A DNA stretch of 64,000 nt from Clostridiales bacterium. GTDB taxonomy: Bacteria > Bacillota > Clostridia > Christensenellales > Pumilibacteraceae. The stretch lies in contig JAIEBI010000020.1 in the NCBI GenBank assembly GCA_029070965.1, positions 45,498-109,497 of the forward strand, read 5' to 3'. The position numbers and the translations under genes were made by a program. Of the stretch, positions 2,627 to 14,730 are shown piece after piece. Below the pieces are notes generated by a model. That model made no database searches and was not told the origin of the DNA. It saw only the letters and a list, made by a program, of their open reading frames with translations. The number at the start of each line of letters is the position of its first letter. The stretch's first letter is position 1.

Positions 2627-2642
2627 GTTTTCTTTCAAAGCA

Positions 2643-2670
2643 AACACCCCGCAGCATACTGCGGGGTGTT
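2643..2670. terminator. Intrinsic terminator (convergent genes)
   Basis: AACACCCCGCAG-cata-CTGCGGGGTGTT followed by T-rich tract. Confidence 0.8.
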
Positions 2671-2694
2671 TTGTTTTTATTTTCGGCGTGGCGC

Positions 2695-3270
2695 TTATAG
2701 AGTTGCAAAAGTGATAAGGAACATAAGACCGAAGATTGCCGACAGCCCTGCCAATACGATGGCGGAAATGCTGAGAATAAGCGGAGCGATAGCCATGGGC
2801 GCGCCCTGCTTTTTGGCACGAACAACTGTCAAAAGCGAACGAATGCCAAACACAAGCCCCACAACAGTCAGCGGCAAAGCGAGCACAAAGAACACCCAAG
2901 CTACTGCTTTGATTGCTGTTAGGTCGGTTACCGTCGGGTATACGTACTCTCCCAGCTCGAAGTCAAAGCTCGGAGTCAAATGCCCGAGCCCGCCCCAGAC
3001 GTATTGGACGGCGAGAATAAACGCCACCAGCATAAACACGTACCCGATTGCGCCGGTTATCACCGCTGCGAGCGACGGCTTGAACGCGAGCATTCTCGGA
3101 TTGCCGCCCGACTTGGCGGCGGGTTGTTGCGGCTGCTGCTGAGCTGCGTTCGGCGGTTGAACGGCGTCCTGCTGCTTTTGCCCGTCGCCGAGCACCGACT
3201 CGTTGTGCGAGCACTCGTCGCATAACTGTTCCGGCCCGTCAATGAACTTGCCGCATTTTGTGCAATACAT
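2695..3270 (-). CDS. Zinc-ribbon membrane protein
   Basis: MYCTKCGKFIDGPEQLCDEC followed by Pro/Gln linker and hydrophobic segments. Confidence 0.7.
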   Translation of the reverse strand: MYCTKCGKFIDGPEQLCDECSHNESVLGDGQKQQDAVQPPNAAQQQPQQPAAKSGGNPRMLAFKPSLAAVITGAIGYVFMLVAFILAVQYVWGGLGHLTPSFDFELGEYVYPTVTDLTAIKAVAWVFFVLALPLTVVGLVFGIRSLLTVVRAKKQGAPMAIAPLILSISAIVLAGLSAIFGLMFLITFATL

Positions 3271-3304: not shown

Positions 3305-4240
3305 TTATACAAAATCGCGGACGAACTGTTTGACCTGTTCGTCGTAACCGCACTCGTCGTTTATGCGAATGTGCGAGTGAATACCCTTGTCGAACCAACA
3401 AATGCGCTTTTTCGCCGCGCATTTATCGTAAAGCTTTTGGACGTTGGCGGGGTCGGAAAAAACGTCCTCCCTGCTGTAAATAAACATTATCGGGATTTCG
3501 AGCTTGTTCACCATATTATACGGACAGAATTTTTTTGCGCTCTTGCCCGCCGCATGGCGAATGTACGACATTATAAGCGGGATAAACGGAAACGTCGGCT
3601 TTTTGCGTTCCTTAAACCTATATTTGAGCATTATGCCGAAGTCGTTGTACATGCCCTCGGTGACAAGCCCGTCAAAAAGCTTTTTGCCCTCGGGGTCGGT
3701 CGCGGCGTACGTTGCCGTCGCGCCGCCTATGCATATCCCGTGAAGCAATACGCTTTCCACACCGAATTCGGTTTTTAACAGCTTTGCCCACTCGATAATG
3801 TCCTTGTATTCGCGTAGCCCAATCGTGTTGTACTTGCCCTCGGACAGCCCGTGCGAGCGGTTATCGATAGCGAGTATATTGTAGCCCAGTTCCTTATAAG
3901 GCTTGGCAAAGTAGTACGAATACGCGCATGTTTCCATTCGGCCTGGGATAATAATGACAGCCTTTTTGCCGCCGAAATCGTAATACTCGCCGACCAGCCG
4001 CAGTCCCTCGCTCTTTACCGAAACCTGCTTGTGGAACGCGGCGTTCTCCTCGCCCCATTCCAACCCGATGCGGAACATTTCGCGCTGCTCCTCGTTGTCC
4101 CAGCTGCAATCCCTGCCCCACTTGTCGGGCGTTTCCCTTACCAGCAAAATGGTGTAGATTTTGCGCGATATAAAAATTATAATGAACACGGCGGGCGCGA
4201 GCAACAAAACTACGCCGAGGCTTATATACAGCGCAAGCAT
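3305..4240 (-). CDS. Alpha/beta hydrolase, membrane-anchored
   Basis: ORF 3305..4297; GICIGG nucleophile-elbow-like motif, N-term TM; start at MLALYI overlaps the upstream stop. Confidence 0.75.
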   Translation of the reverse strand: MLALYISLGVVLLLAPAVFIIIFISRKIYTILLVRETPDKWGRDCSWDNEEQREMFRIGLEWGEENAAFHKQVSVKSEGLRLVGEYYDFGGKKAVIIIPGRMETCAYSYYFAKPYKELGYNILAIDNRSHGLSEGKYNTIGLREYKDIIEWAKLLKTEFGVESVLLHGICIGGATATYAATDPEGKKLFDGLVTEGMYNDFGIMLKYRFKERKKPTFPFIPLIMSYIRHAAGKSAKKFCPYNMVNKLEIPIMFIYSREDVFSDPANVQKLYDKCAAKKRICWFDKGIHSHIRINDECGYDEQVKQFVRDFV

Positions 4241-5862
4241 CACATCACCCCCGCAATCAGGTCGTACACCGTTTGTCCGCCGTACACAAATTCGCACGAC
4301 AGTCCAAACTCGTTATCTATCCGCTCGGCAAGCGCGTCCTCGTCGATATCGAGCGCACAGCCCTTTATAATAAACACGCCGCTTTTGTCCGAAATATCCT
4401 TTACGTTTTTGAGCGCAACGACAAACGCGTCTTCCACGCTTTGCGCGGCGCACACAGGCTTTTTGCCGATAAAGCCGAGCATGTCGCCCGCCTTGCACGA
4501 AACGGTGACCGAATTGTAATTTTTAAGACTGCGCGCCACCGACACGGTGACCGCCGCCTTTATTCCGTCTGACATAGCCGATATGCGGGTTTGGGCGTCC
4601 TCTATGTCGGACGTGCCGTTGGCAAGCGCGTAATATCCCTCGATTACCGTTTGCGTCGGCAAAACGGTTACGCCGCCCTCGCCGAAAAGCGTTATCGCCT
4701 GCTCCGCCGCCTTTACGTTGTTGCCATTGTTGGGCAAAACCACAATGCAGTCGGCATTTGCGTTTTTGTACGCCGTGCAAAACTCGCTAGCCGACACGCC
4801 CATTGCGTGCCCGCCCGAAATTACGATGTCCGCTCCGCAGTCCTTGTACATGCCGGTGATGCCGTCGCCCTCGGCAACTGCAACGATGGCAAAACGCTTG
4901 CGCGGCTTAGCCGCTTTGTTCTTGATAAACTCGCTGTGTTGGAGCTGCATGTTCTCGATTTTTACGGTGGTGAACTCGCCGTAACGCTGCGCTTCCTCAA
5001 GCGCCTTGGACGGAGTGAGGGTGTGAATATGCACCTTGACTACGCCGTCCTGCTCGATGACGATAAGCGAATCGCCCATGCTCTCTAACGCGCGCGTAAA
5101 CTCCTTTACATGGAATGGCATTTTGTAGTCGAGCAGCTGCAACAAAAATTCGGTGCAGTAGCCGAGCGTGAACCTGTCGGATTTGTCAAGCACGCCGGTC
5201 TCCGACGAAACTCCGTTGCCTACCGCCGCTACCTCGACGGACGCGTCGATTTCCACTTTTTCGCCGTTGAGCGCTTTTAGCATGCCGTCGACTATTACGA
5301 TATAACCGAGCGCGCCGCTGTCCATAACGCCAGCTTCTTTAAGCACAGGTAGCATGTCGGGCAAAGTCAAATAGCTCTTGCGCATTTCGCCGAGGTAATC
5401 GGTCATTACATCCTCGACGCACTCGTTTTTGCCGACGGCGCGTTCTATCCCCTCGCGCGCGACTGTGAGTATCGTGCCCTCGACGGGATGGACTATTGCG
5501 CTGTACGCCGACTTGTACGCCGACGTAAACGCGGCATGCATTTCGCCCGCGTCGGCTGTCGAGCAGCTTTGCAGCTCATCGTAAATTCCCTTGAAAAGCT
5601 GCGACAGTATTACGCCCGAATTGCCGCGCGCACCCCAAAGCATGCCCGACGTCAGCGATTTAAGATACTCGCCGAGATTATTGTCGGGCGCCGCGCACTT
5701 TATTCCGTTTTCCAAAGTGGTGCGCATGTTTATGCCCGTGTCGCCGTCCGAAACGGGAAACACGTTCATTGCGTTGATTTCCTTTTCACGGTTACAAAGA
5801 TTGTTGTAACCGTTGATTATCATTGCGCGGAAATCGTCACCGTTGATTTGTTTATGTTTCAT
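4240..5862 (-). CDS. DAK2 (DhaL) domain protein, FakA-like fatty acid kinase subunit
   Basis: MNVFPVSDGDTGINMRTTLENG DAK2 motif; full-length two-domain architecture. Confidence 0.85.
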   Translation of the reverse strand: MKHKQINGDDFRAMIINGYNNLCNREKEINAMNVFPVSDGDTGINMRTTLENGIKCAAPDNNLGEYLKSLTSGMLWGARGNSGVILSQLFKGIYDELQSCSTADAGEMHAAFTSAYKSAYSAIVHPVEGTILTVAREGIERAVGKNECVEDVMTDYLGEMRKSYLTLPDMLPVLKEAGVMDSGALGYIVIVDGMLKALNGEKVEIDASVEVAAVGNGVSSETGVLDKSDRFTLGYCTEFLLQLLDYKMPFHVKEFTRALESMGDSLIVIEQDGVVKVHIHTLTPSKALEEAQRYGEFTTVKIENMQLQHSEFIKNKAAKPRKRFAIVAVAEGDGITGMYKDCGADIVISGGHAMGVSASEFCTAYKNANADCIVVLPNNGNNVKAAEQAITLFGEGGVTVLPTQTVIEGYYALANGTSDIEDAQTRISAMSDGIKAAVTVSVARSLKNYNSVTVSCKAGDMLGFIGKKPVCAAQSVEDAFVVALKNVKDISDKSGVFIIKGCALDIDEDALAERIDNEFGLSCEFVYGGQTVYDLIAGVM

Positions 5863-5885
5863 CTTAAACCCTGAAAAGTTTAGTA

Positions 5886-7361
5886 TTAGTTTTCCGCCGC
5901 CGTATCGTCAGCAACGCTGTCGACGACAGGCTGTTCAGCCACCTCGACCGTTGCAGGCTCGTCCGCTGCCGACTGATTGTCCGCTCCTTGCGCGTTCCCC
6001 GTCGCCTCAGCCATGCTATCCGACGCCTCGGTAGGCAGCGGCGCCTCGCCGAGTTTGCCGAGTACGTTTATCGACTTGGGCAAAATGAAGGATAGCGCAA
6101 AAGCGACCAAACAGCCCACGCTGCACAAAACGGTCAGATAAGTCATTGCGCCGCCGTTTTGTTTGAGTGCGGTAAGCACCACGCCGGTAGCGAGTCCGGT
6201 AGCGACGCCGGCAAACAGTCCCTGCACGGCAAAGTACATTGCCGAGTGCTTAATGCCCGTACGCTTTTCGTCCTCGGCGGCGAGGTGTGACGGAATGGAG
6301 TACGCCACAGCAAAAAACGCGCCTATCGAGAACGAGCAAATTACGCCGCCCAGTATGCCGCACGCCAGCTTTACCGCTCCGCTCGGCGAGAACGACGCGC
6401 CGAACAATGCCAACATACTCACCGAATAAGCGATAAGCGTATATCGGAAAGCGAACCCAAAGCCCTTCTTTTTGATTATGTAGTTGTACAGCATCAGCGT
6501 AAACGGCACGGGCACGAACGCACCCAACATAACATATATCATGCTCATGCCTGTATACGAAAAGTATTCGTTAATGCCGCCGAGGAAAAGCTGCGACCCG
6601 AAGGTCATAAAGGCGTACACGACCATCCAAAGAATAAAATCCTTGTTCTTGAATGTGTATGCTATCGACTTGAATAGATTTACCGTTTCGGACTCGAGCT
6701 TTTTGCCCTTTGTGCTCTCCTCTTTGATCATAAACATGGGTATTATCATCGTCAGCGATATAGGCAGGACAATAAGCGCAACCCACTTAATGTTCATGCC
6801 GCTGAGCAACATACGCACAACCACGTATCCGACGATAAAGTAGATTATGTCGGCTACCGACTTGACGTTGGAAACAAAGTTGCGGTCGTCGATATTGTCC
6901 ACCACCTCGGTAAACGTCGCATAGTACGTGACCATGGTAAGAGTATACGCCGCATAGAACAAGCATAGCACCAGCCCGAAAAACACGGTGTTGCCTATCG
7001 TCGCGCCGTTGTTGGGTATTATAAGCACAAACAATAGGTACGACGCTATCAGCGCAACAAGACCGATAAGTATTGTCGGGCGGCGCCGTCCCCATCGGCT
7101 TTTCAGCCGATCGGTAAACGACGCCATCGGTATGTCTATTATGCCGTCTATTATTTTTGCGACAAGCACGAACGCCGCCCATGCCGCCGCTACCACGAGG
7201 TCCTTTTGCGCAAAGGTTTGAAAGGGCACGTCCGCGGGTTTAAATCCGCCTTTAAGCAACGCGCTGCACAAGTACGAGCCCATCATTAGATTGAGCAGGT
7301 TTACGCCAAAGCCCGAAAAGCCGTACAGCAAGAGCTTTGCTTTTCCCTTGATTGGTTTCAT
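5886..7361 (-). CDS. MFS transporter, GPH sugar:cation symporter-like
   Basis: 12-TM-like; YGFSGFGVNLLNLMMGSYL and DRLKSRWGRRRP motifs. Confidence 0.8.
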   Translation of the reverse strand: MKPIKGKAKLLLYGFSGFGVNLLNLMMGSYLCSALLKGGFKPADVPFQTFAQKDLVVAAAWAAFVLVAKIIDGIIDIPMASFTDRLKSRWGRRRPTILIGLVALIASYLLFVLIIPNNGATIGNTVFFGLVLCLFYAAYTLTMVTYYATFTEVVDNIDDRNFVSNVKSVADIIYFIVGYVVVRMLLSGMNIKWVALIVLPISLTMIIPMFMIKEESTKGKKLESETVNLFKSIAYTFKNKDFILWMVVYAFMTFGSQLFLGGINEYFSYTGMSMIYVMLGAFVPVPFTLMLYNYIIKKKGFGFAFRYTLIAYSVSMLALFGASFSPSGAVKLACGILGGVICSFSIGAFFAVAYSIPSHLAAEDEKRTGIKHSAMYFAVQGLFAGVATGLATGVVLTALKQNGGAMTYLTVLCSVGCLVAFALSFILPKSINVLGKLGEAPLPTEASDSMAEATGNAQGADNQSAADEPATVEVAEQPVVDSVADDTAAEN

Positions 7362-7413
7362 CTTGAGTTCCTTGTCAATAAGTATTTGTAGTGTTGTTAT
7401 TTATTGCGGTGTA

Positions 7414-8346
7414 TTACTTTTTGGCGAGCAACCGCGTTACAAGCTCGCGCTCCTCGGCGAGGTCCTCGGAAATGGGCTTGCCCATGTAGTATGCCGCCAT
7501 AAGCCCGGGGCCGACGTTTATTCCGCTCGACGGATATACGTAGTTGATGTACACCGCCTTGGGATGGAACTTGTCCTCGAGCATCTTTTTGTACGCTTCG
7601 GCTTGCTTGTATCTGTCCGCCGTTGCGACAAAAATAATTTGCTCCTCGGGATTTTCGATAGTCGCGGCTATGTATTCGAGCAGTACGGGGTACGCCTGCT
7701 TTTCGCCCTTAGCCTTGCCTATAACCGTCGTCATGCCGTTCTTGTCGAACTCGCCTATCGGCTTCAAGCCCATGAGCGTACCGAAAAACGCCTTGGCAGA
7801 CGTCAACCGACCCTTTTTGGCGACAAACGACAAATCGTCCAGCCAACCGGCTTGGTGGAAGCGATTAAGATTGTTCTCCACCCAATCGGCGGTTTCGTCG
7901 AGCGACTTGCCCTCTTTGCGCAACAACGACGCGTAAACGCAAAGCAAGCCGTGTCCGGACGAGAACCTGCGCGAGTCGATAGTGCGAATAGCGGCGTCCG
8001 GATATTTGCTTTTCACTTCCTCTACCGCCTTGGTCAAAAACGCATACGTTCCGCTGAGCGCCGAGCTAATGGTGAGCGCAAGCACGCCCACACCCTGTTT
8101 TGCATAATCTTCAAGCACGGTCGCCCATTCGTTTACGTTGGGCGGCGCCGTCGTATAGTCGTTGGGCTTTGCGCGCAACGCCTTGTAGAACTCGGACGGT
8201 GTGGTGTCGGTCCATTCGAGATAGGACTCATGCTCTTTGCCGTCGGGCGTGGTAAAGTGACCGTTGATATACTCGATGTCGTACTCCGCCCGAAGCTCTT
8301 TGCCGAGGTCGCAAGTGATGTCTGCCAAAATGACGAATTTTTCCAT
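7414..8346 (-). CDS. DegV family protein (FakB-like fatty-acid-binding)
   Basis: FVILADITCDL, TTAPPNVNEW, ALTISSALSGTY motifs typical of DegV. Confidence 0.85.
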   Translation of the reverse strand: MEKFVILADITCDLGKELRAEYDIEYINGHFTTPDGKEHESYLEWTDTTPSEFYKALRAKPNDYTTAPPNVNEWATVLEDYAKQGVGVLALTISSALSGTYAFLTKAVEEVKSKYPDAAIRTIDSRRFSSGHGLLCVYASLLRKEGKSLDETADWVENNLNRFHQAGWLDDLSFVAKKGRLTSAKAFFGTLMGLKPIGEFDKNGMTTVIGKAKGEKQAYPVLLEYIAATIENPEEQIIFVATADRYKQAEAYKKMLEDKFHPKAVYINYVYPSSGINVGPGLMAAYYMGKPISEDLAEERELVTRLLAKK

Positions 8347-8363
8347 AATTTTTTGTCTCCTCC

Positions 8364-9275
8364 TTAGAGATAATTATTGATAAAGTTGTGTATTTTTGCC
8401 GCCGAGTCGCCGTTTAGCGCGGCGGTCGTATGCCCGCAGCCCTCGACGAGCAAAAGCTGTTTGGGTGCCGAACACGCCTCGTAGTTTTGCCGCGAATGCT
8501 CGCATGGAACGGCGGCATCCTCCGTGCCGTGAATGAAAAACGACGGAACGGCGGTGTTTTTAATATGGTCGAGCGTGCTCGCATTGAAATCGATACCCAG
8601 CTCGCGCTTGCACCTTTTTGCCAGCATCGCAAACATCGGCTTGGGCGCATGGGTCTGTTTTGCTATCCGATTTATCATGTTGCCGACGGACGTAAACCCG
8701 CAGTCGTATACCGCGGCGCGCACATCGCTCGGCAGCCTGTCCGATGTCATTCCTATGATCGCCGCGCCCAACGATATGCCGTACAGCACGATTTTTGCGG
8801 GATGATTTTGGGTGATGAATTTTATCCATTCAAGCAGGTCGTCGCTTTCTCGCTTGCCATAGGTTACGTGCTCGCCGCCGCTTTTGCCGTGCGCGCGCAT
8901 GTCGGGAATGAGAACGTTGAACCCCCACTCGATAAACCGCTCGGCAGTCACCGAAAAATTGTTGAGCGGATGCGAGCTGGCGCCGTGCAAAAATATGACC
9001 GTCTTGTCCCGCCCATAGTCGTAGTACCGCCCGTACAGGTCTACGCCGTCGGCGGCAGTAATATGCTGTTCGGCAAACGGCAGCTTTTCCATTCGCTCGC
9101 GTGCGGCGCAAATGTCCTGCCTGAACTTATCGTAATGCGCGTCGGAAAGCTCCTTCCGCTCGATACCGCGAAAGAAAAACTTTTTGTAGCACATGTAGCT
9201 GCCTATCGGCATGGACGCGAGGAACCCGATAACCAAAAACGCGACTATTCCCAACCCGATATACAAATACATCAT
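8364..9275 (-). CDS. Alpha/beta hydrolase, membrane-anchored
   Basis: FLHGASSHPLNN, GISLGAAIIGM elbow; start MMYLYIG overlaps upstream stop by 4 nt. Confidence 0.8.
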   Translation of the reverse strand: MMYLYIGLGIVAFLVIGFLASMPIGSYMCYKKFFFRGIERKELSDAHYDKFRQDICAARERMEKLPFAEQHITAADGVDLYGRYYDYGRDKTVIFLHGASSHPLNNFSVTAERFIEWGFNVLIPDMRAHGKSGGEHVTYGKRESDDLLEWIKFITQNHPAKIVLYGISLGAAIIGMTSDRLPSDVRAAVYDCGFTSVGNMINRIAKQTHAPKPMFAMLAKRCKRELGIDFNASTLDHIKNTAVPSFFIHGTEDAAVPCEHSRQNYEACSAPKQLLLVEGCGHTTAALNGDSAAKIHNFINNYL

Positions 9276-10285
9276 ACCGTGCCCTCCGTCGCTATCGGCG
9301 TTGCGCCGCCGTCCTTCCACACAAAAAACCGTGCGTGGTCGGGGTTTTTCGCGCACACCGCTATCCTTGTGCCGTCGTAAACGCAAAGCTTGTACTTATA
9401 GTCGGCGGGATTTATCTTGTTCGGCTTGAACCCGCCCTTACCGAACGCCTTGAATGCGCTCTCCTTTTTTATCCATTGGCAAAGCAGCGTGTCATGCGAT
9501 ATATTTTCGCGCTTTGCGGATATTTTTACCCCAAGCGCGCTTACTGTATTGCTGTCATATCTATTCGCAAACGCCGCTATGTCCTCGGCGTCCACGCCGC
9601 ACGGCTCGTCGGAAACGGCTACGACGGCAAACGTATCGGTATGCGATATGGAAAACCACAGCTTGTCGCACACCCACTTGCCGTTTTTCAGTTTGTCGAA
9701 TTTCAGCTCGGGCAAAGCACAGCCGAAGCTGCGTTTTACCGCCGCCTCCAACAACAGCCACGCCGTCGTCTTTTGATTTTTTAACTTTTGCGAGGTAATG
9801 TTTTGCACCTCGTCCTGCCGCGCTTGCGGAACGAGCACGGCACTATTGTCGTCCGATACCTCCGCTATATACACGTCGAGTACCGAGCGCGACAGCCACT
9901 TGCCGCGCACCGCTTCCTCCTGCTCGCTGCGGTGAACTCCGAAATAACATTCGTTGGCAAAGTGCTCGCAGTTGTTGGTAATTACGTCGTAACCGCCCTC
10001 GCCTATACGGCTTTTTGCGGCGGCGACCGTTTGCTGCGGGGATAAACGCTTTTTGCGCTCGGCCTTGTCGGGAACACCCACCTCGACAAAGCTGCCGCAA
10101 CAAAACTTGTCGATGTCGGTCGCGCAAACTACCACGCCGACAGGATTTACATTCAGCCCGCCCACGGGCGGCAGTCCAAACTGCACGACCTCGTCGTCCG
10201 AAACGTAAATTCCGTAATGCAAAATCGCTCCGCACTTTACGCGGATCATGTCACCGAATTTGCAGTTGTCGACAATCCATTTCAA
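9272..10285 (-). CDS. LRAT-domain / 4'-phosphopantetheinyl transferase fusion
   Basis: N-term HYGIYVSDDEVVQFG..NCEHFANECYFG (LRAT-like); C-term FSISHTDTFAVVAVSDEPCGVDAED..WIKKESAFKAFGKG (PPTase motifs). Confidence 0.75.
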   Translation of the reverse strand: MKWIVDNCKFGDMIRVKCGAILHYGIYVSDDEVVQFGLPPVGGLNVNPVGVVVCATDIDKFCCGSFVEVGVPDKAERKKRLSPQQTVAAAKSRIGEGGYDVITNNCEHFANECYFGVHRSEQEEAVRGKWLSRSVLDVYIAEVSDDNSAVLVPQARQDEVQNITSQKLKNQKTTAWLLLEAAVKRSFGCALPELKFDKLKNGKWVCDKLWFSISHTDTFAVVAVSDEPCGVDAEDIAAFANRYDSNTVSALGVKISAKRENISHDTLLCQWIKKESAFKAFGKGGFKPNKINPADYKYKLCVYDGTRIAVCAKNPDHARFFVWKDGGATPIATEGTV

Positions 10286-10965
10286 TTTCGTTTACCGTAT
10301 TTCCTTTCGCAGAATTCTTGCAATTCTTTTTCCCTGTCGTACAAAAGCTGAGCCAGTGTCAGTCGGTAGGCAAGCGGCGATTTTTTGCGCTCCTCCTCGT
10401 CTACGTATATCGGCTCACCGAAAACGATTTTAATCCGTTCCCAACAGCTTTTGCGCGGACTGATATATACGGGAATTATGGGCTTGCCCGACATTATCGC
10501 CATAAGCACCGCGCCCGATTTGTACTCTCCGATCGTCTTGGTCGCGTCGTTCTCGTTGATATGCCCTTCGGGAAAAATGCCCACCACCTTTCCCGCATTG
10601 AGCAACGAAACTATTTCGCGCATGCTGCTCATGCTCGTGTTTTCGCGATCGATTGCCACAACGTTGGTGAAATGTTTAAACCACATGCGACTCCATTTAT
10701 TTTCGTATACTTCTTTTATCGTTACAAAATGCAACCGCCTGTACCAAACCGCCGTCATCAAATACGAAACGTCAAAAAAGCCGATATGATTGGACGCGAG
10801 TATCGCCCCGCCCTTAATCTTCTTTTTTGCGGCGGGGGTGACGTACAGCTTCTTCACGCGATAAGCAACCAGTGCAGGTATCGCACCGGTAACTCGCACA
10901 AAGTCGAACAGAAAGTATTTAAACGAGAAGATTTTACCCTTTTTGTTTTTCACCGAGCAGCTCAC
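10282..10965 (-). CDS. Lysophospholipid (1-acylglycerol-3-phosphate) acyltransferase, PlsC-like
   Basis: NHIGFFD (NHx4D) and FPEGH motifs. Confidence 0.85.
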   Translation of the reverse strand: MSCSVKNKKGKIFSFKYFLFDFVRVTGAIPALVAYRVKKLYVTPAAKKKIKGGAILASNHIGFFDVSYLMTAVWYRRLHFVTIKEVYENKWSRMWFKHFTNVVAIDRENTSMSSMREIVSLLNAGKVVGIFPEGHINENDATKTIGEYKSGAVLMAIMSGKPIIPVYISPRKSCWERIKIVFGEPIYVDEEERKKSPLAYRLTLAQLLYDREKELQEFCERKYGKRN

Positions 10966-11569
10966 CCAAGTCGATTATTTTTTGTCTAAGCGCGACGGTT
11001 ACGTCGTTTAAGTTTTGCCGATACGTTTTGTCGTCGTCGTACAGCTCGCGCGCGTCTATCGGCTTGCCTATTATTACGCGCGCCCGTTTTTTGCCGAAAT
11101 AATTGCCGTCCGTGTATGCGGGTATAAGCTTGACCCCCGTCATGAGCGCGAGTGCCGCCGCGCCCGTTTTGAACTCTATGGGCGGCGTTTCGCCCTCTTT
11201 GGCAAGTCGGCCCTCGGGGAAAATTCCCACCACGCCGCCTTTTTTGAGAATGCGCTCGGACTTGTCTATGCATGACGTTTCATGTGTGTCCCTGTTTACC
11301 TCAATGCCGCCGAGCGCCCGCAAAAATCCGCTTAGTCCCCTCTTTTTGAACAGCACCTCCGCCATTTGATAGCGCAGTGTGCGCGAAAAGAATACGAACA
11401 TCATAACCGCATAGTCGTAAACCGACGTATGGTTAGATATTATTATCGCCGGACCCTTTATCCGCCGAGACTGTGCTTTTTTGTCCTCGTAGTAGACTTT
11501 GGTTTTAAAGCACAGCTTTTGCGGTAGCCAGCCCGTGATTTTTACCAGCCAGTTAAACAGCGCTATCAT
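10934..11569 (-). CDS. Lysophospholipid acyltransferase, PlsC-like (second copy)
   Basis: NHTSVYD and FPEGRL motifs. Confidence 0.88.
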   Translation of the reverse strand: MIALFNWLVKITGWLPQKLCFKTKVYYEDKKAQSRRIKGPAIIISNHTSVYDYAVMMFVFFSRTLRYQMAEVLFKKRGLSGFLRALGGIEVNRDTHETSCIDKSERILKKGGVVGIFPEGRLAKEGETPPIEFKTGAAALALMTGVKLIPAYTDGNYFGKKRARVIIGKPIDARELYDDDKTYRQNLNDVTVALRQKIIDLGELLGEKQKG

Positions 11570-13479
11570 AGCTTGCCCTTGATGTACTCACTCATGCCTT
11601 TTACGGTGGTGAGCATTCCGTCGCCCTGCGGCAACGCCACGCCGAACTCGTTTTGCACCGCCGCGAGCAGCGCGTAGTAGTCGAGGCTCGACCCGCCCTC
11701 GTCGGCAAAAAAGTCGGCATTTACGGCAACAGCCTCCCCGTCCTTGCCGAGCGCGACCGCAAACAGTGCGCGCACCGACCGTTGAAGCTCGTCCAGCTGC
11801 TCGGCGTCCGACAGCTTGTCTATATCTACGACGGGAAGCGTCCCTGCAAGATATTCGGAGCGCAGCCTGCGACGGTTGAGCTTAAACTCCTCGCCGCGCA
11901 ACAGCGGCTCGCCGACAAACACTATATTGCCGATTTGCGCCGTCATGTTCAGCTCGGCAAGCCGAGCCTTTATCTCGTCCAGCAATGCCGACAGCTTTGC
12001 CTTGTCGGCAAACCGCGACACGCCTGCGAGCAGGACGGGCGCCGTTTTTCCCGCGACTATACACACTTCGCTCACCCCGTCAAAAGTCAGCTTGGGCTCG
12101 ACAAGATTGGGGTTTAGGTTTTCTCCCGACGCGCCGACGATAAGGTCATCCTTGCGCCCGAGTATGTAATACCTGCCGCCTTGCTTTTTGGCGAGGTCGT
12201 GGGTGTTGTAGTACCCGTCGCCTATGACGGTGGTGCCGTCGCTCTCTATTATTTCGTGACTGACCGATCTGCCCTTTACAAGCAGCTCGCCGTCGGCGCT
12301 TATCTTATACTCGACGGACGGCAGGGTTGTGCCCACCGAGCCGTTTGTAAGCAATTTGAATTTGGTCGACAGCTCGACAGAGGTTATGCCTATCTCGGTC
12401 ATGCCGTAGCCGTTTGCAAGCGGATAGCCTGCGGCGTTGAAAAAGCGCAAAACATCCGCCGAAACGGCGCTGCCGCCGGTAATGGTAAACTTTACGCTGT
12501 CGCCGAATAAATTGTCGCGCACTTCCTTAAACCCGAACTTCGTCACGAGCTTGCCCAATATCGGCACGCCGGCAAGCCGCAGTCCCTTGCGGAACTTTTT
12601 GTACGTCTTTTCGCCGCGCGCCTTTATTGTGGCGATTGCCTTTTTGTAGACGGTGTCCCAAAACAGCGGCACGGCAAATATATGCGTCACCTTGTGCCGA
12701 CGAATGGTGTTCAGTATGGTGTCGGGGCTGAGGTCGTTCAGCTTGACAAACGTGCGCGAGAAGAACCCGAACCAAATATACACCGCCACCAGTCCGAAAA
12801 TATGATAGAACGGCAAAAATGCGAGCAATTTAAGATTGCCCTCGCAATGCTTTTTTATGCGCGGGTTTTGCTTGATTATGTGCATGCTGTCGCGCACTTG
12901 TTCTATAAACTGCTTGGCGGTGTAGCCGCACACCTTGACCGAGGCCGACGTCCCCGACGACATGACAAATATCTCGGTGCCCAGCGCGTCGTAGTCGAGC
13001 TTAGTTTCCGCCCCGACTATATCTTTTTGGTTGACTGTTTTTACGCAATCGAAAACCTTGCCGTCAGAAATGACGAGCACCGCATTCATTTTTTTCAGCG
13101 CGTCCTCAAGCGCGAGCGTATCCAGCCGCAAATTGAGCAGTAACGGACGGCAGCCGCACAGCAGCACCGCCCAAAACATCTCTATCCAGTCCAACCCGTT
13201 GTCCATGTACAAGCCGACAACGCTGTCCGTCGGCGCGTCGCCTAGCATTGCTTTGAGCGTAGTCGCCCGCCGTTCTATATTGTCCTTGCACTCGCCATAC
13301 GTAGTTTTGTCTATCTTGTAGCCGCGCGACTGCTCGAATATCACGTTGTTCCGCTCGGAAAACATCAGCTCGTACAAAGACCGCATAGTAGGCGGCGCCG
13401 AATTGAGCCTGTCAATTTTGTACTGCGCAAACGAATTGAGCGTTTTGTAATTTTCTATGTGGTGATCAAACTTGGCCAT
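11566..13479 (-). CDS. AMP-dependent acyl ligase with C-terminal carrier-protein-like domain
   Basis: SSGTSASVKV, NGYGMTE, GRKDDLIV; C-term DEGGSSLDYYALLAAVQNEFGVALP resembles an ACP/PCP Ser motif. Confidence 0.82.
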   Translation of the reverse strand: MAKFDHHIENYKTLNSFAQYKIDRLNSAPPTMRSLYELMFSERNNVIFEQSRGYKIDKTTYGECKDNIERRATTLKAMLGDAPTDSVVGLYMDNGLDWIEMFWAVLLCGCRPLLLNLRLDTLALEDALKKMNAVLVISDGKVFDCVKTVNQKDIVGAETKLDYDALGTEIFVMSSGTSASVKVCGYTAKQFIEQVRDSMHIIKQNPRIKKHCEGNLKLLAFLPFYHIFGLVAVYIWFGFFSRTFVKLNDLSPDTILNTIRRHKVTHIFAVPLFWDTVYKKAIATIKARGEKTYKKFRKGLRLAGVPILGKLVTKFGFKEVRDNLFGDSVKFTITGGSAVSADVLRFFNAAGYPLANGYGMTEIGITSVELSTKFKLLTNGSVGTTLPSVEYKISADGELLVKGRSVSHEIIESDGTTVIGDGYYNTHDLAKKQGGRYYILGRKDDLIVGASGENLNPNLVEPKLTFDGVSEVCIVAGKTAPVLLAGVSRFADKAKLSALLDEIKARLAELNMTAQIGNIVFVGEPLLRGEEFKLNRRRLRSEYLAGTLPVVDIDKLSDAEQLDELQRSVRALFAVALGKDGEAVAVNADFFADEGGSSLDYYALLAAVQNEFGVALPQGDGMLTTVKGMSEYIKGKL

Positions 13480-14535
13480 TTAGATATATCTCTCGTAAAA
13501 GTCGGTAATTTGCTGAAACATTTGTATATTCAGCCGCGACGAGAATTTTTGTCTGTCTATCCCGTCGATAATCTTTTTTCGTTCGGCGGACGATGCCGCG
13601 CCGTCGATCGCGGCGCTCAACGTTTGTGTGTATTTCCAGCCTTCGGCGGAGTACAATATTGCGGTGTGTCCTGCGCCGCTCCAGTAAAACTCGACTCGCG
13701 GATTTTTTGAAAACGCCGAATAGTACGCGTCAATCCCGTACTTTGTAGGCACAACGTTGTCCGACGCGCCGTGCGCTATAAATACGCCTGCGGAACTCTT
13801 TTTCACCGCCTCTACCCCGTTTGCCGAAGCAAACTCGCCGAAGCGTATGCGTTCCACCGACTTGACGTACGGAAGAAGCGTCAGCGATATTTTGCCCGCA
13901 TACTCTACGCCTTTTGCCTCGATCATGTCGGTCGAGCGGGTAAATCCCGCCACGCTCGCAACGGCCTTTACGTCGCTGTCGTACGCCAAAGCGCACACCG
14001 CCGAGTATCCGCCCCAGCTGTGCCCAAACAGCACGATTGGCAGCTTAGACTGCTTTTTGACAAAAGCTATCGCGGCAAGCTCGTCCTTTATGCCCTGCGG
14101 CAGACCGCCCACCTCGCTCGGGCTTTCGTCGTTGCCCGTCGCGTCGTAGGCAAACACCTCATAACCGCATGCCGCAAAGTACGCCGACACGTCGAGATAG
14201 CCGTTTTGCCCGCCTCCGCCAAACCCGTGCGACAGTACTACCGTCGCCCGCGGCTGCGTATTTTTCGAGCAATACATGTACCCGACAAGCGTGTTCTCTC
14301 CCGACTTAAAGGTGTACCTTTGGCAGCTAAGGCCTTGGAAATCGCTTACCTCGAACCGAAGATGCTCGGCAGTCTCAAACCGTCGCCCGAACACTTTGTC
14401 GAGCACAACGGCGGATACGGTGTACGGCGCTACCACAAGCAAAATTAAAAGAACGGTAACGACCGAGACGCTCCAAACTATGAGCTTTTTTCTTTTACTC
14501 CACGCCATGACCCGCCTATACCTATCGTAGCCCAA
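13480..14535 (-). CDS. Alpha/beta hydrolase, membrane-anchored
   Basis: LSHGFGGGGQNGY, FGHSWGGYSAV elbow; N-term TM; start may be MAWSKR. Confidence 0.8.
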   Translation of the reverse strand: MGYDRYRRVMAWSKRKKLIVWSVSVVTVLLILLVVAPYTVSAVVLDKVFGRRFETAEHLRFEVSDFQGLSCQRYTFKSGENTLVGYMYCSKNTQPRATVVLSHGFGGGGQNGYLDVSAYFAACGYEVFAYDATGNDESPSEVGGLPQGIKDELAAIAFVKKQSKLPIVLFGHSWGGYSAVCALAYDSDVKAVASVAGFTRSTDMIEAKGVEYAGKISLTLLPYVKSVERIRFGEFASANGVEAVKKSSAGVFIAHGASDNVVPTKYGIDAYYSAFSKNPRVEFYWSGAGHTAILYSAEGWKYTQTLSAAIDGAASSAERKKIIDGIDRQKFSSRLNIQMFQQITDFYERYI

Positions 14536-14548
14536 ACACCGAAAAAGA

Positions 14549-14599
14549 CACGTGTAGGCTACATGTGCGATTGTATCACAATGCTAACATATTTGTCAA
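14549..14599 (-). promoter_or_regulatory. Candidate promoter and overlapping dyad operator of the ten-gene operon
   Basis: Minus strand TTGACA (14594-14599)-18 nt-TACAAT (14570-14575); imperfect palindrome CACGTGTAGGCTACATGTG at 14549-14567 at the +1 region. Confidence 0.5.
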
Positions 14600-14701: not shown

Positions 14702-14730
14702 TTGACACGCATTAATAAAAATAATATAAT
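14702..14730 (+). promoter_or_regulatory. Sigma70-type promoter
   Basis: TTGACA-17 nt-TATAAT upstream of the DUF1508 gene. Confidence 0.7.

What the first reader, a model, noticed from the sequence alone, without database searches (positions are those of the whole stretch)
3305..14535. Ten-gene translationally coupled operon that looks like a self-contained acyl-lipid capture/assembly system
Seen: ten minus-strand genes, most with 1-32 nt overlaps. In transcription order they are alpha/beta hydrolase, AMP-ligase with carrier-like C-term, PlsC, PlsC, LRAT-PPTase fusion, hydrolase, DegV, GPH MFS, DAK2/FakA, hydrolase. Established: FakA plus DegV-type FakB phosphorylates exogenous fatty acids, PlsC acylates lysophospholipids, AMP-ligases load acyl groups on carriers, and PPTases activate carriers. 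Inference: a dedicated pathway that takes fatty acids released by the hydrolases, activates them through FakAB and/or the ligase-carrier, and builds an acylated membrane or secreted lipid. I do not recognise this gene set as a described system.
Basis: partly seen in the sequence, partly recalled or inferred. Interest (0 to 1): 0.78.

Follow-up and report, generated by a model that had tools for sequence, protein, structure and literature searches.

The report
Lipid-salvage operon of gut Clostridia
This is a conserved, mobile set of about eleven genes that probably lets gut bacteria, most of which appear unable to make their own fatty acids, capture fatty acids and perhaps partly digested lipids from their surroundings and build them into membrane lipid; its parts are individually familiar but no description of the combination was found.

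Summary
In detail: ten minus-strand genes lie in the stated order, and five of nine junctions overlap by 1-32 nt. A strong promoter-like site lies just upstream. An eleventh gene, a zinc-ribbon membrane protein at 2695-3270, probably belongs to the unit and was missed. Order and content recur in dozens of uncultured gut/rumen Clostridia and some Acholeplasmatales/Bacilli MAGs at about 35-60% protein identity, so this is a real functional unit. Most relatives add a second AMP-ligase and a free acyl carrier protein, which the window lacks. FabF and FabD were found in neither the host genome nor 36 of 43 island-bearing genomes. However, FabF is missing from about 80% of the order, so this is background rather than specific to the island. 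The island is patchy (8 of 297 genomes) and its ligase tree does not follow taxonomy. The transporter model matches the lysophosphatidylcholine symporter MFSD2A slightly better than MelB, and the LRAT domain matches human PLAAT phospholipase A/acyltransferases. Best reading: an accessory exogenous-acyl-lipid salvage system working like E. coli LplT-Aas plus FakAB. Lysolipid import is inferred, and nothing is shown biochemically. New variant of a known kind.

The parts
14570..14599 (-). promoter-like site TTGACA-18-TACAAT, 11 of 12
   Evidence: consensus match only
13480..14535 (-). HydA: membrane-anchored Ser alpha/beta hydrolase (GHSWGG; S173, D259, H290). True start may be the ATG at 14508
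   Evidence: homologue directly upstream of the ligase in several loci (L021, L023, L042, L044, L046, L051); a homologue is fused to a PPTase in L107
11566..13479 (-). Lig: AMP-forming acyl ligase with C-terminal carrier domain (carrier Ser598; E362, D428, R442, K533 conserved)
   Evidence: 93 homologues aligned
10934..11569 (-). PlsC1: acyltransferase, NHTSVYD (HX4D) and FPEGR
10282..10965 (-). PlsC2: acyltransferase, NHIGFFD and FPEGH
   Evidence: fused to PlsC1 in several relatives
9272..10285 (-). LRAT-PPTase fusion: PLAAT-like thiol lipase/acyltransferase (H23, NCEHF Cys106) plus Sfp-type phosphopantetheinyl transferase (G230-D232, W271-K274-E275)
8364..9275 (-). HydB: membrane-anchored Ser alpha/beta hydrolase (GISLG; S205, D290, H319 in the numbering of the TTG-start ORF 8364-9386)
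7414..8346 (-). DegV / FakB-type fatty-acid-binding protein
5886..7361 (-). GPH-family MFS transporter (PF13347); model closest to MFSD2A, then MelB
4240..5862 (-). FakA (DAK2/YloV family) fatty-acid kinase, D39/D41 motif intact
3305..4240 (-). HydC: membrane-anchored alpha/beta hydrolase with invariant Cys nucleophile (GxC189xG, D278, H307 in the numbering of the GTG-start ORF 3305-4297)
2695..3270 (-). eleventh gene: zinc-ribbon + transmembrane (DUF4190-like) protein, function unknown
   Evidence: same-strand counterpart after the island in many loci
2642..2671 (.). 13-bp inverted repeat, terminator-like, likely end of the unit
   Evidence: T tail called on the + strand only

Best explanation
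An accessory operon for capturing exogenous acyl lipids and building them into membrane phospholipid, working like E. coli LplT-Aas combined with FakAB. Proposed order of events. (1) The GPH/MFSD2A-fold transporter brings in a monoacyl lipid such as a lysophospholipid (inferred). (2) The membrane-anchored hydrolases and the LRAT thiol enzyme release or exchange acyl chains (inferred). (3) Free fatty acids are bound by the DegV/FakB protein and phosphorylated by FakA, giving acyl-phosphate for PlsY and PlsX encoded elsewhere (family function established, not assayed here). (4) In parallel Lig adenylates fatty acids and loads them on its own carrier domain, primed by the PPTase domain (active sites shown intact, reaction inferred). 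(5) PlsC1 and PlsC2 acylate lysophospholipid and/or lysophosphatidic acid (inferred). Most hosts examined appear to lack fatty-acid synthesis, so all their acyl chains would come from outside; the island would broaden which acyl lipids they can use.
For: Conserved unit in 54 loci. Catalytic residues conserved in all enzymes. FabF and FabD not found in the host genome nor in 36 of 43 island-bearing genomes; FabF-positive relatives do ring for FabD. plsX is followed directly by rnc and smc in the host, without fabD, fabG or acpP between (locus L115). PlsC domains match the Aas fusion family PRK08633 (E 3e-21 and 3.5e-16), as well as the general PlsC family TIGR00530. Transporter model: best solved matches 8d2t, 8d2s, 7mjs = MFSD2A, MelB third. 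LRAT domain matches PLAAT2/3/4. PlsC~LRAT fusion beside DegV, FakA, Lig and HydC in L108/L109, and a PPTase~HydA fusion in L107. Two homologous GPH transporters replace each other: MFS in 25 loci, MFSL in 18, never both. DegV matches solved FakB1 proteins.
Against: No biochemical or expression data. MFSD2A and MelB scores are close (8.7e-11 and 9.7e-10), so the substrate is not settled by fold. The FakAB block is separable: MFSL-type islands lack it. Some hosts (Lachnospiraceae and Acholeplasmatales MAGs) keep FabF/FabD, and most FabF-less relatives do without the island, so it is neither sufficient nor necessary for fatty-acid auxotrophy. PlsX, PlsC and FakA copies elsewhere could already make phospholipid from fatty acids.
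Confidence: 0.55

Rival explanations
1. A dedicated phosphatidic-acid pathway from free fatty acids only: two acyl-ACP synthetase/carrier pairs (Lig-carrier, Lig2+ACP) feed two PlsC enzymes of different position or chain preference; the transporter and hydrolases only supply fatty acids; no lysolipid is imported.
For: Pairing of two ligases, two carriers and two PlsC genes in most relatives (36 of 54 loci have Lig2); fatty-acid kinase present; FASII apparently absent.
Against: The window lacks Lig2 and free ACP within the unit yet keeps two PlsC; the transporter model resembles a lysolipid symporter; FakAB with PlsX already gives acyl-ACP (PMC12594616), so the ligases would be redundant.
Confidence: 0.25
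2. A special-lipid pathway: the LRAT enzyme and PlsC pair make an unusual acylated lipid (for example a headgroup-acylated or N-acylated phospholipid) from exogenous chains.
For: PLAAT enzymes are known to N-acylate phosphatidylethanolamine (own knowledge); LRAT is in 43 of 54 loci and fused to PlsC in L108/L109; HydC has a Cys nucleophile, seen in acyl-transferring hydrolase-fold enzymes (own knowledge); patchy distribution fits an accessory product.
Against: No headgroup, glycosyl- or aminoacyl-transferase in the unit; an LRAT acting simply as phospholipase A explains it equally.
Confidence: 0.15
3. Two independent modules that happen to sit together: HydA-Lig-PlsC1-PlsC2-LRAT-PPT-HydB and DegV-MFS-FakA-HydC, with the transporter carrying a sugar.
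For: MFSL-type islands lack FakA (0 of 18); L018 and L067 carry the blocks in another order; PF13347 members are mostly sugar symporters (own knowledge).
Against: The blocks recur together in over 25 loci; distant minimal islands L108/L109 again join DegV, FakA, Lig, PlsC~LRAT and HydC; GPH transporters of two kinds are exchanged in the same unit.
Confidence: 0.05

Closest known systems
LplT-Aas lysophospholipid remodelling system (E. coli; PRK08633/PRK08043 fusions)
   Same: PlsC-type acyltransferase + acyl-ACP-synthetase-like ligase + MFS transporter in one unit; PlsC domains match the Aas fusion families among others.
   Different: Parts are separate genes; transporter is of the GPH/MFS_2 family, not LplT; the ligase carries its own carrier domain and is closest to MenE/FadD-type ligases; extra FakAB, LRAT, PPTase and hydrolases. 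LplT-Aas has been identified only in Gram-negative bacteria (PMC11416262).
FakAB-PlsX-PlsY-PlsC exogenous fatty acid pathway of Firmicutes
   Same: FakA and DegV-type FakB homologues; host genomes keep PlsX and nearly all keep PlsY.
   Different: Island FakA is the most divergent of three copies in the host (464 against 615 and 527 bits) and sits with ligase, LRAT and hydrolases rather than with plsX, plsY or only a FakB.
MFSD2A lysophosphatidylcholine symporter (and MelB)
   Same: Fold: first, second and fourth best solved matches of the transporter model; window protein is PF13347 by sequence.
   Different: About 15% identity; no sequence-level match to either in the PDB set; substrate unknown.
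PLAAT (HRASLS) phospholipase A/acyltransferases
   Same: LRAT domain with His and NCEHF Cys; TM-score 0.7-0.8 normalised to PLAAT targets.
   Different: Fused to an Sfp-type PPTase (or, in distant relatives, to PlsC); activity untested.

Membership tests
LplT-Aas | PlsC acyltransferase and acyl-ACP synthetase-type ligase encoded together | tested here: met
   adjacent overlapping genes, intact motifs; not fused to each other
LplT-Aas | LplT-type transporter | tested here: not met
   PF13347 MFS_2 (GPH); NCBIfam hits are GPH symporters
LplT-Aas | lysophospholipid uptake and reacylation | not testable with these tools
   needs transport and acylation assays
FakAB fatty acid kinase | DAK2-FakA domains and a DegV FakB | tested here: met
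   PF02734+PF21645+PF13684, YloV over its curated cut-off; DegV over cut-off; the FakB1 and FakA/VfrB equivalog cut-offs are not reached
FakAB fatty acid kinase | fatty acid phosphorylation | not testable with these tools
   needs assay
MFSD2A / lysolipid symporter | closest structural neighbour among solved structures | tested here: inconclusive
   MFSD2A E 8.7e-11, MelB E 9.7e-10
GPH sugar symporter (MelB) | sugar-binding carboxylates of helices I and IV | tested here: inconclusive
   in the alignment the equivalent positions appear to be N21 and M143, not Asp, but the register was set against MelB from memory
PLAAT/LRAT thiol acyltransferase | catalytic His and NCEHF-type Cys | tested here: met
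   H23, C106, E107, H108, F109 invariant in 32 LRAT-PPTase proteins
Sfp-type PPTase | GxDxE and WxxKE motifs | tested here: met
   G230, D232, W271, K274, E275 invariant; Sfp 1qr0 E 4.7e-14 with the family profile; the window sequence alone does not reach the Pfam cut-off
FASII-less fatty acid auxotroph (host) | no FabF and no FabD | tested here: met
   none in a 94.5% complete genome; controls ring. Other FASII genes were not searched

The most novel reading that the evidence does not exclude
A Gram-positive lysolipid import and re-acylation system: a prokaryotic MFSD2A-like flippase, a PLAAT-like acyl-exchange enzyme and carrier-fused ligases let gut bacteria without fatty-acid synthesis assemble membranes from host- or diet-derived lysolipids, and the system spreads between lineages as an exchangeable island.
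Probability: 0.33. Interest if true: 0.82.

Novelty: new variant of a known kind. Interest (0 to 1): 0.62.

Why it matters
Many uncultured gut bacteria have lost fatty-acid synthesis (reported for RF39 in PMC6784871; here FabF was not found in about 239 of 297 genomes of the window's order), and how they obtain acyl chains bears directly on why they resist culture. LplT-Aas is known only from Gram-negative bacteria, while lysolipid uptake and acylation have been seen in streptococci, and MFSD2A-like transporters have been raised as a possibility elsewhere (PMC11416262). This island names a concrete transporter, ligase and acyltransferase set that can be tested, and suggests which lipids to add to media.

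Tried and rejected
Island as a compensation specific to FASII loss: rejected; FabF is missing from about 80% of the order with or without the island (7 of 8 island genomes against 232 of 289 others). Missing PlsY in the host genome as a sign that PlsC1/PlsC2 start glycerolipid synthesis: rejected as a probable assembly gap, since 58 of 59 family genomes, including all 15 same-genus relatives searched, have PlsY. An apparent PlsC~Lig2 fusion in L105: rejected, its N-terminus is an out-of-frame extension. Lig carrier as the only carrier in the genome: rejected, a free ACP exists at G000:C46. Sequence-only PDB search for the transporter gave nothing useful. Literature: no paper found describing this gene set or an LRAT-PPTase protein; most subscription papers and preprints are not in the library.
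Full report
OBSERVATION. The ten ORFs are present on the minus strand in the stated order, and Pfam/NCBIfam support every domain call. Reading the junctions, five of nine overlap by 1-32 nt, one is flush, and three have gaps of 17, 52 and 23 nt. Two ORF starts should be moved: HydB to ATG 9275 and HydC to ATG 4240. A promoter-like site (11 of 12) sits at 14599-14570, just upstream of the first gene.

THE UNIT IS REAL. One scan with the ligase gave 80 loci from uncultured gut and rumen Clostridia, with a few MAGs named Acholeplasmatales, Bacilli or Erysipelotrichaceae. The neighbourhood is conserved at roughly 35-60% protein identity. In the 54 loci with at least 9.5 kb downstream of the ligase, the contiguous run contains PlsC1 in 51, PlsC2 in 49, a free ACP in 44, LRAT in 43, a second ligase in 36, FakA in 33, DegV in 31, HydC in 31, the PPTase part in 29, HydB in 27, the window-type GPH transporter (MFS) in 25, and a longer GPH transporter (MFSL) in 18. 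MFS and MFSL never occur together, and 469 of 496 gaps are 60 nt or less. The typical order is [HydA]-Lig-PlsC1-PlsC2-Lig2-ACP-LRAT(PPTase)-HydB-DegV-MFS-FakA-HydC. The window lacks Lig2 and the free ACP inside the unit.

VARIANTS. MFSL-type islands put the transporter after Lig and lack FakAB. Lachnospiraceae-type islands have PlsC1~PlsC2 fused and LRAT without PPTase. Distant minimal islands (L108, L109) carry FakA-Lig-PlsC~LRAT-DegV-HydC, with PlsC and LRAT in one protein, though the LRAT Cys appears lost in the L108 copy. In L107 a PPTase is fused to a HydA-like hydrolase. These fusions tie LRAT, PlsC, PPTase and hydrolase together functionally.

ELEVENTH GENE. A zinc-ribbon membrane protein (window 2695-3270, 34 nt after HydC, with AGGAGG) has same-strand counterparts directly after or near the island in many loci of both transporter types, sometimes in tandem. 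It was not seen in about half of the islands extended further downstream. Its role is unknown.

ACTIVE SITES. Across family alignments these are conserved: Lig E362, D428, R442, K533 and carrier Ser598; HX4D and PEG/PER motifs of both PlsC proteins; LRAT His23 and NCEHF Cys106; PPTase G230-D232 and W271-K274-E275; GxSxG triads of HydA and HydB. HydC instead has an invariant GxCxG with Asp278 and His307, i.e. a cysteine nucleophile. Residue numbers for HydB and HydC follow the long ORFs.

STRUCTURE. The transporter model (pLDDT 82) matches MFSD2A first (8d2t, E 8.7e-11), second and fourth, and MelB third (9.7e-10). The LRAT-PPTase model (pLDDT 90) matches Sfp/AASDHPPT-type PPTases and human PLAAT3/HRASLS2, in agreement with profile searches. 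HydC's closest solved relative by profile is an esterase (5g59, E 3.8e-19).

HOST CONTEXT. FabF was not found in the host genome (94.5% complete) and only 6 of 43 island-bearing genomes have a real ketoacyl synthase; FabD agrees (one more genome, G028, has a FabD-like match with a stop). In the host plsX is followed directly by rnc and smc (L115; gene identities by sequence recognition). PlsX is in 40 of 43 and PlsY in 41 of 43. But FabF is missing from about 239 of 297 genomes of the order, while the close ligase orthologue is in only 8, of which one (G333) has a ketoacyl synthase. The island is therefore an accessory trait on a background of lost fatty-acid synthesis, not a specific replacement for it. 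The host also has two other FakA genes (one beside its own DegV), two other PlsC genes, an AcpS-like PPTase and one free ACP. Genomes of one family (window, G333, G208, G324) fall in separate parts of the ligase tree, and island types cluster on the tree more than shuffled labels: patchy, probably partly horizontal inheritance. Support values there are SH-aLRT only.

MECHANISM. Shown: composition, conservation, intact active sites, predicted folds, absence of FabF/FabD. Established for the families: FakAB makes acyl-phosphate for PlsY, and PlsX converts it to acyl-ACP (PMC12594616); Aas makes acyl-ACP and acylates lysophospholipid brought in by LplT (PMC11416262); MFSD2A carries Na+-coupled lysophosphatidylcholine (PMC10083588). 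Inferred: that this island does the same with different parts, and that its transporter carries a lysolipid.

COMPARISON AND NOVELTY. It works like LplT-Aas plus FakAB but fails one defining feature of LplT-Aas (the LplT transporter), so it is not filed as a member. The literature searched gave no description of the set. Fatty-acid-synthesis loss in RF39 was reported before and uptake by the Firmicutes kinase pathway suggested (PMC6784871).

VERDICT. New variant of a known kind, interest 0.62.

Noticed in passing
window order, 297 genomes: FabF was not found in about 239 of 297 genomes of the order: apparent order-wide loss of fatty-acid synthesis, with a minority keeping it.
   Followed up: partly
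G018, G020, G022, G036, G039, G040, G333, G151, G163, G262, G306, G160: Tandem ketoacyl-synthase ORFs of about 770-890 aa (two KS stretches in one frame), unlike canonical single-domain FabF.
   Followed up: no
L115 (G000:C16:1-6770): plsX directly followed by rnc and smc; fabD, fabG and acpP, usual in this cluster in Firmicutes (own knowledge), are missing.
   Followed up: partly
L114, L116, L117, L118, L119: A second FakA copy beside DegV, PlsX or PlsY in FabF-less genomes: several parallel fatty-acid kinases per genome.
   Followed up: partly
window 2695-3270; L106, L107, L029, L032: Zinc-ribbon membrane proteins, in tandem copies beside MFSL-type islands; role unknown.
   Followed up: partly
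window 14702-14730 (+): Perfect sigma-70 consensus (TTGACA-17-TATAAT) on the plus strand, back to back with the operon promoter, ahead of a DUF1508 gene.
   Followed up: no
L107:10543-11292: Prolipoprotein diacylglyceryl transferase (LGT) gene close to an island.
   Followed up: no
MFSL proteins, C-terminal to the MFS domain (alignment A4): Extra conserved C-terminal, probably membrane, region of about 150 residues with no Pfam match, absent from the window transporter.
   Followed up: no
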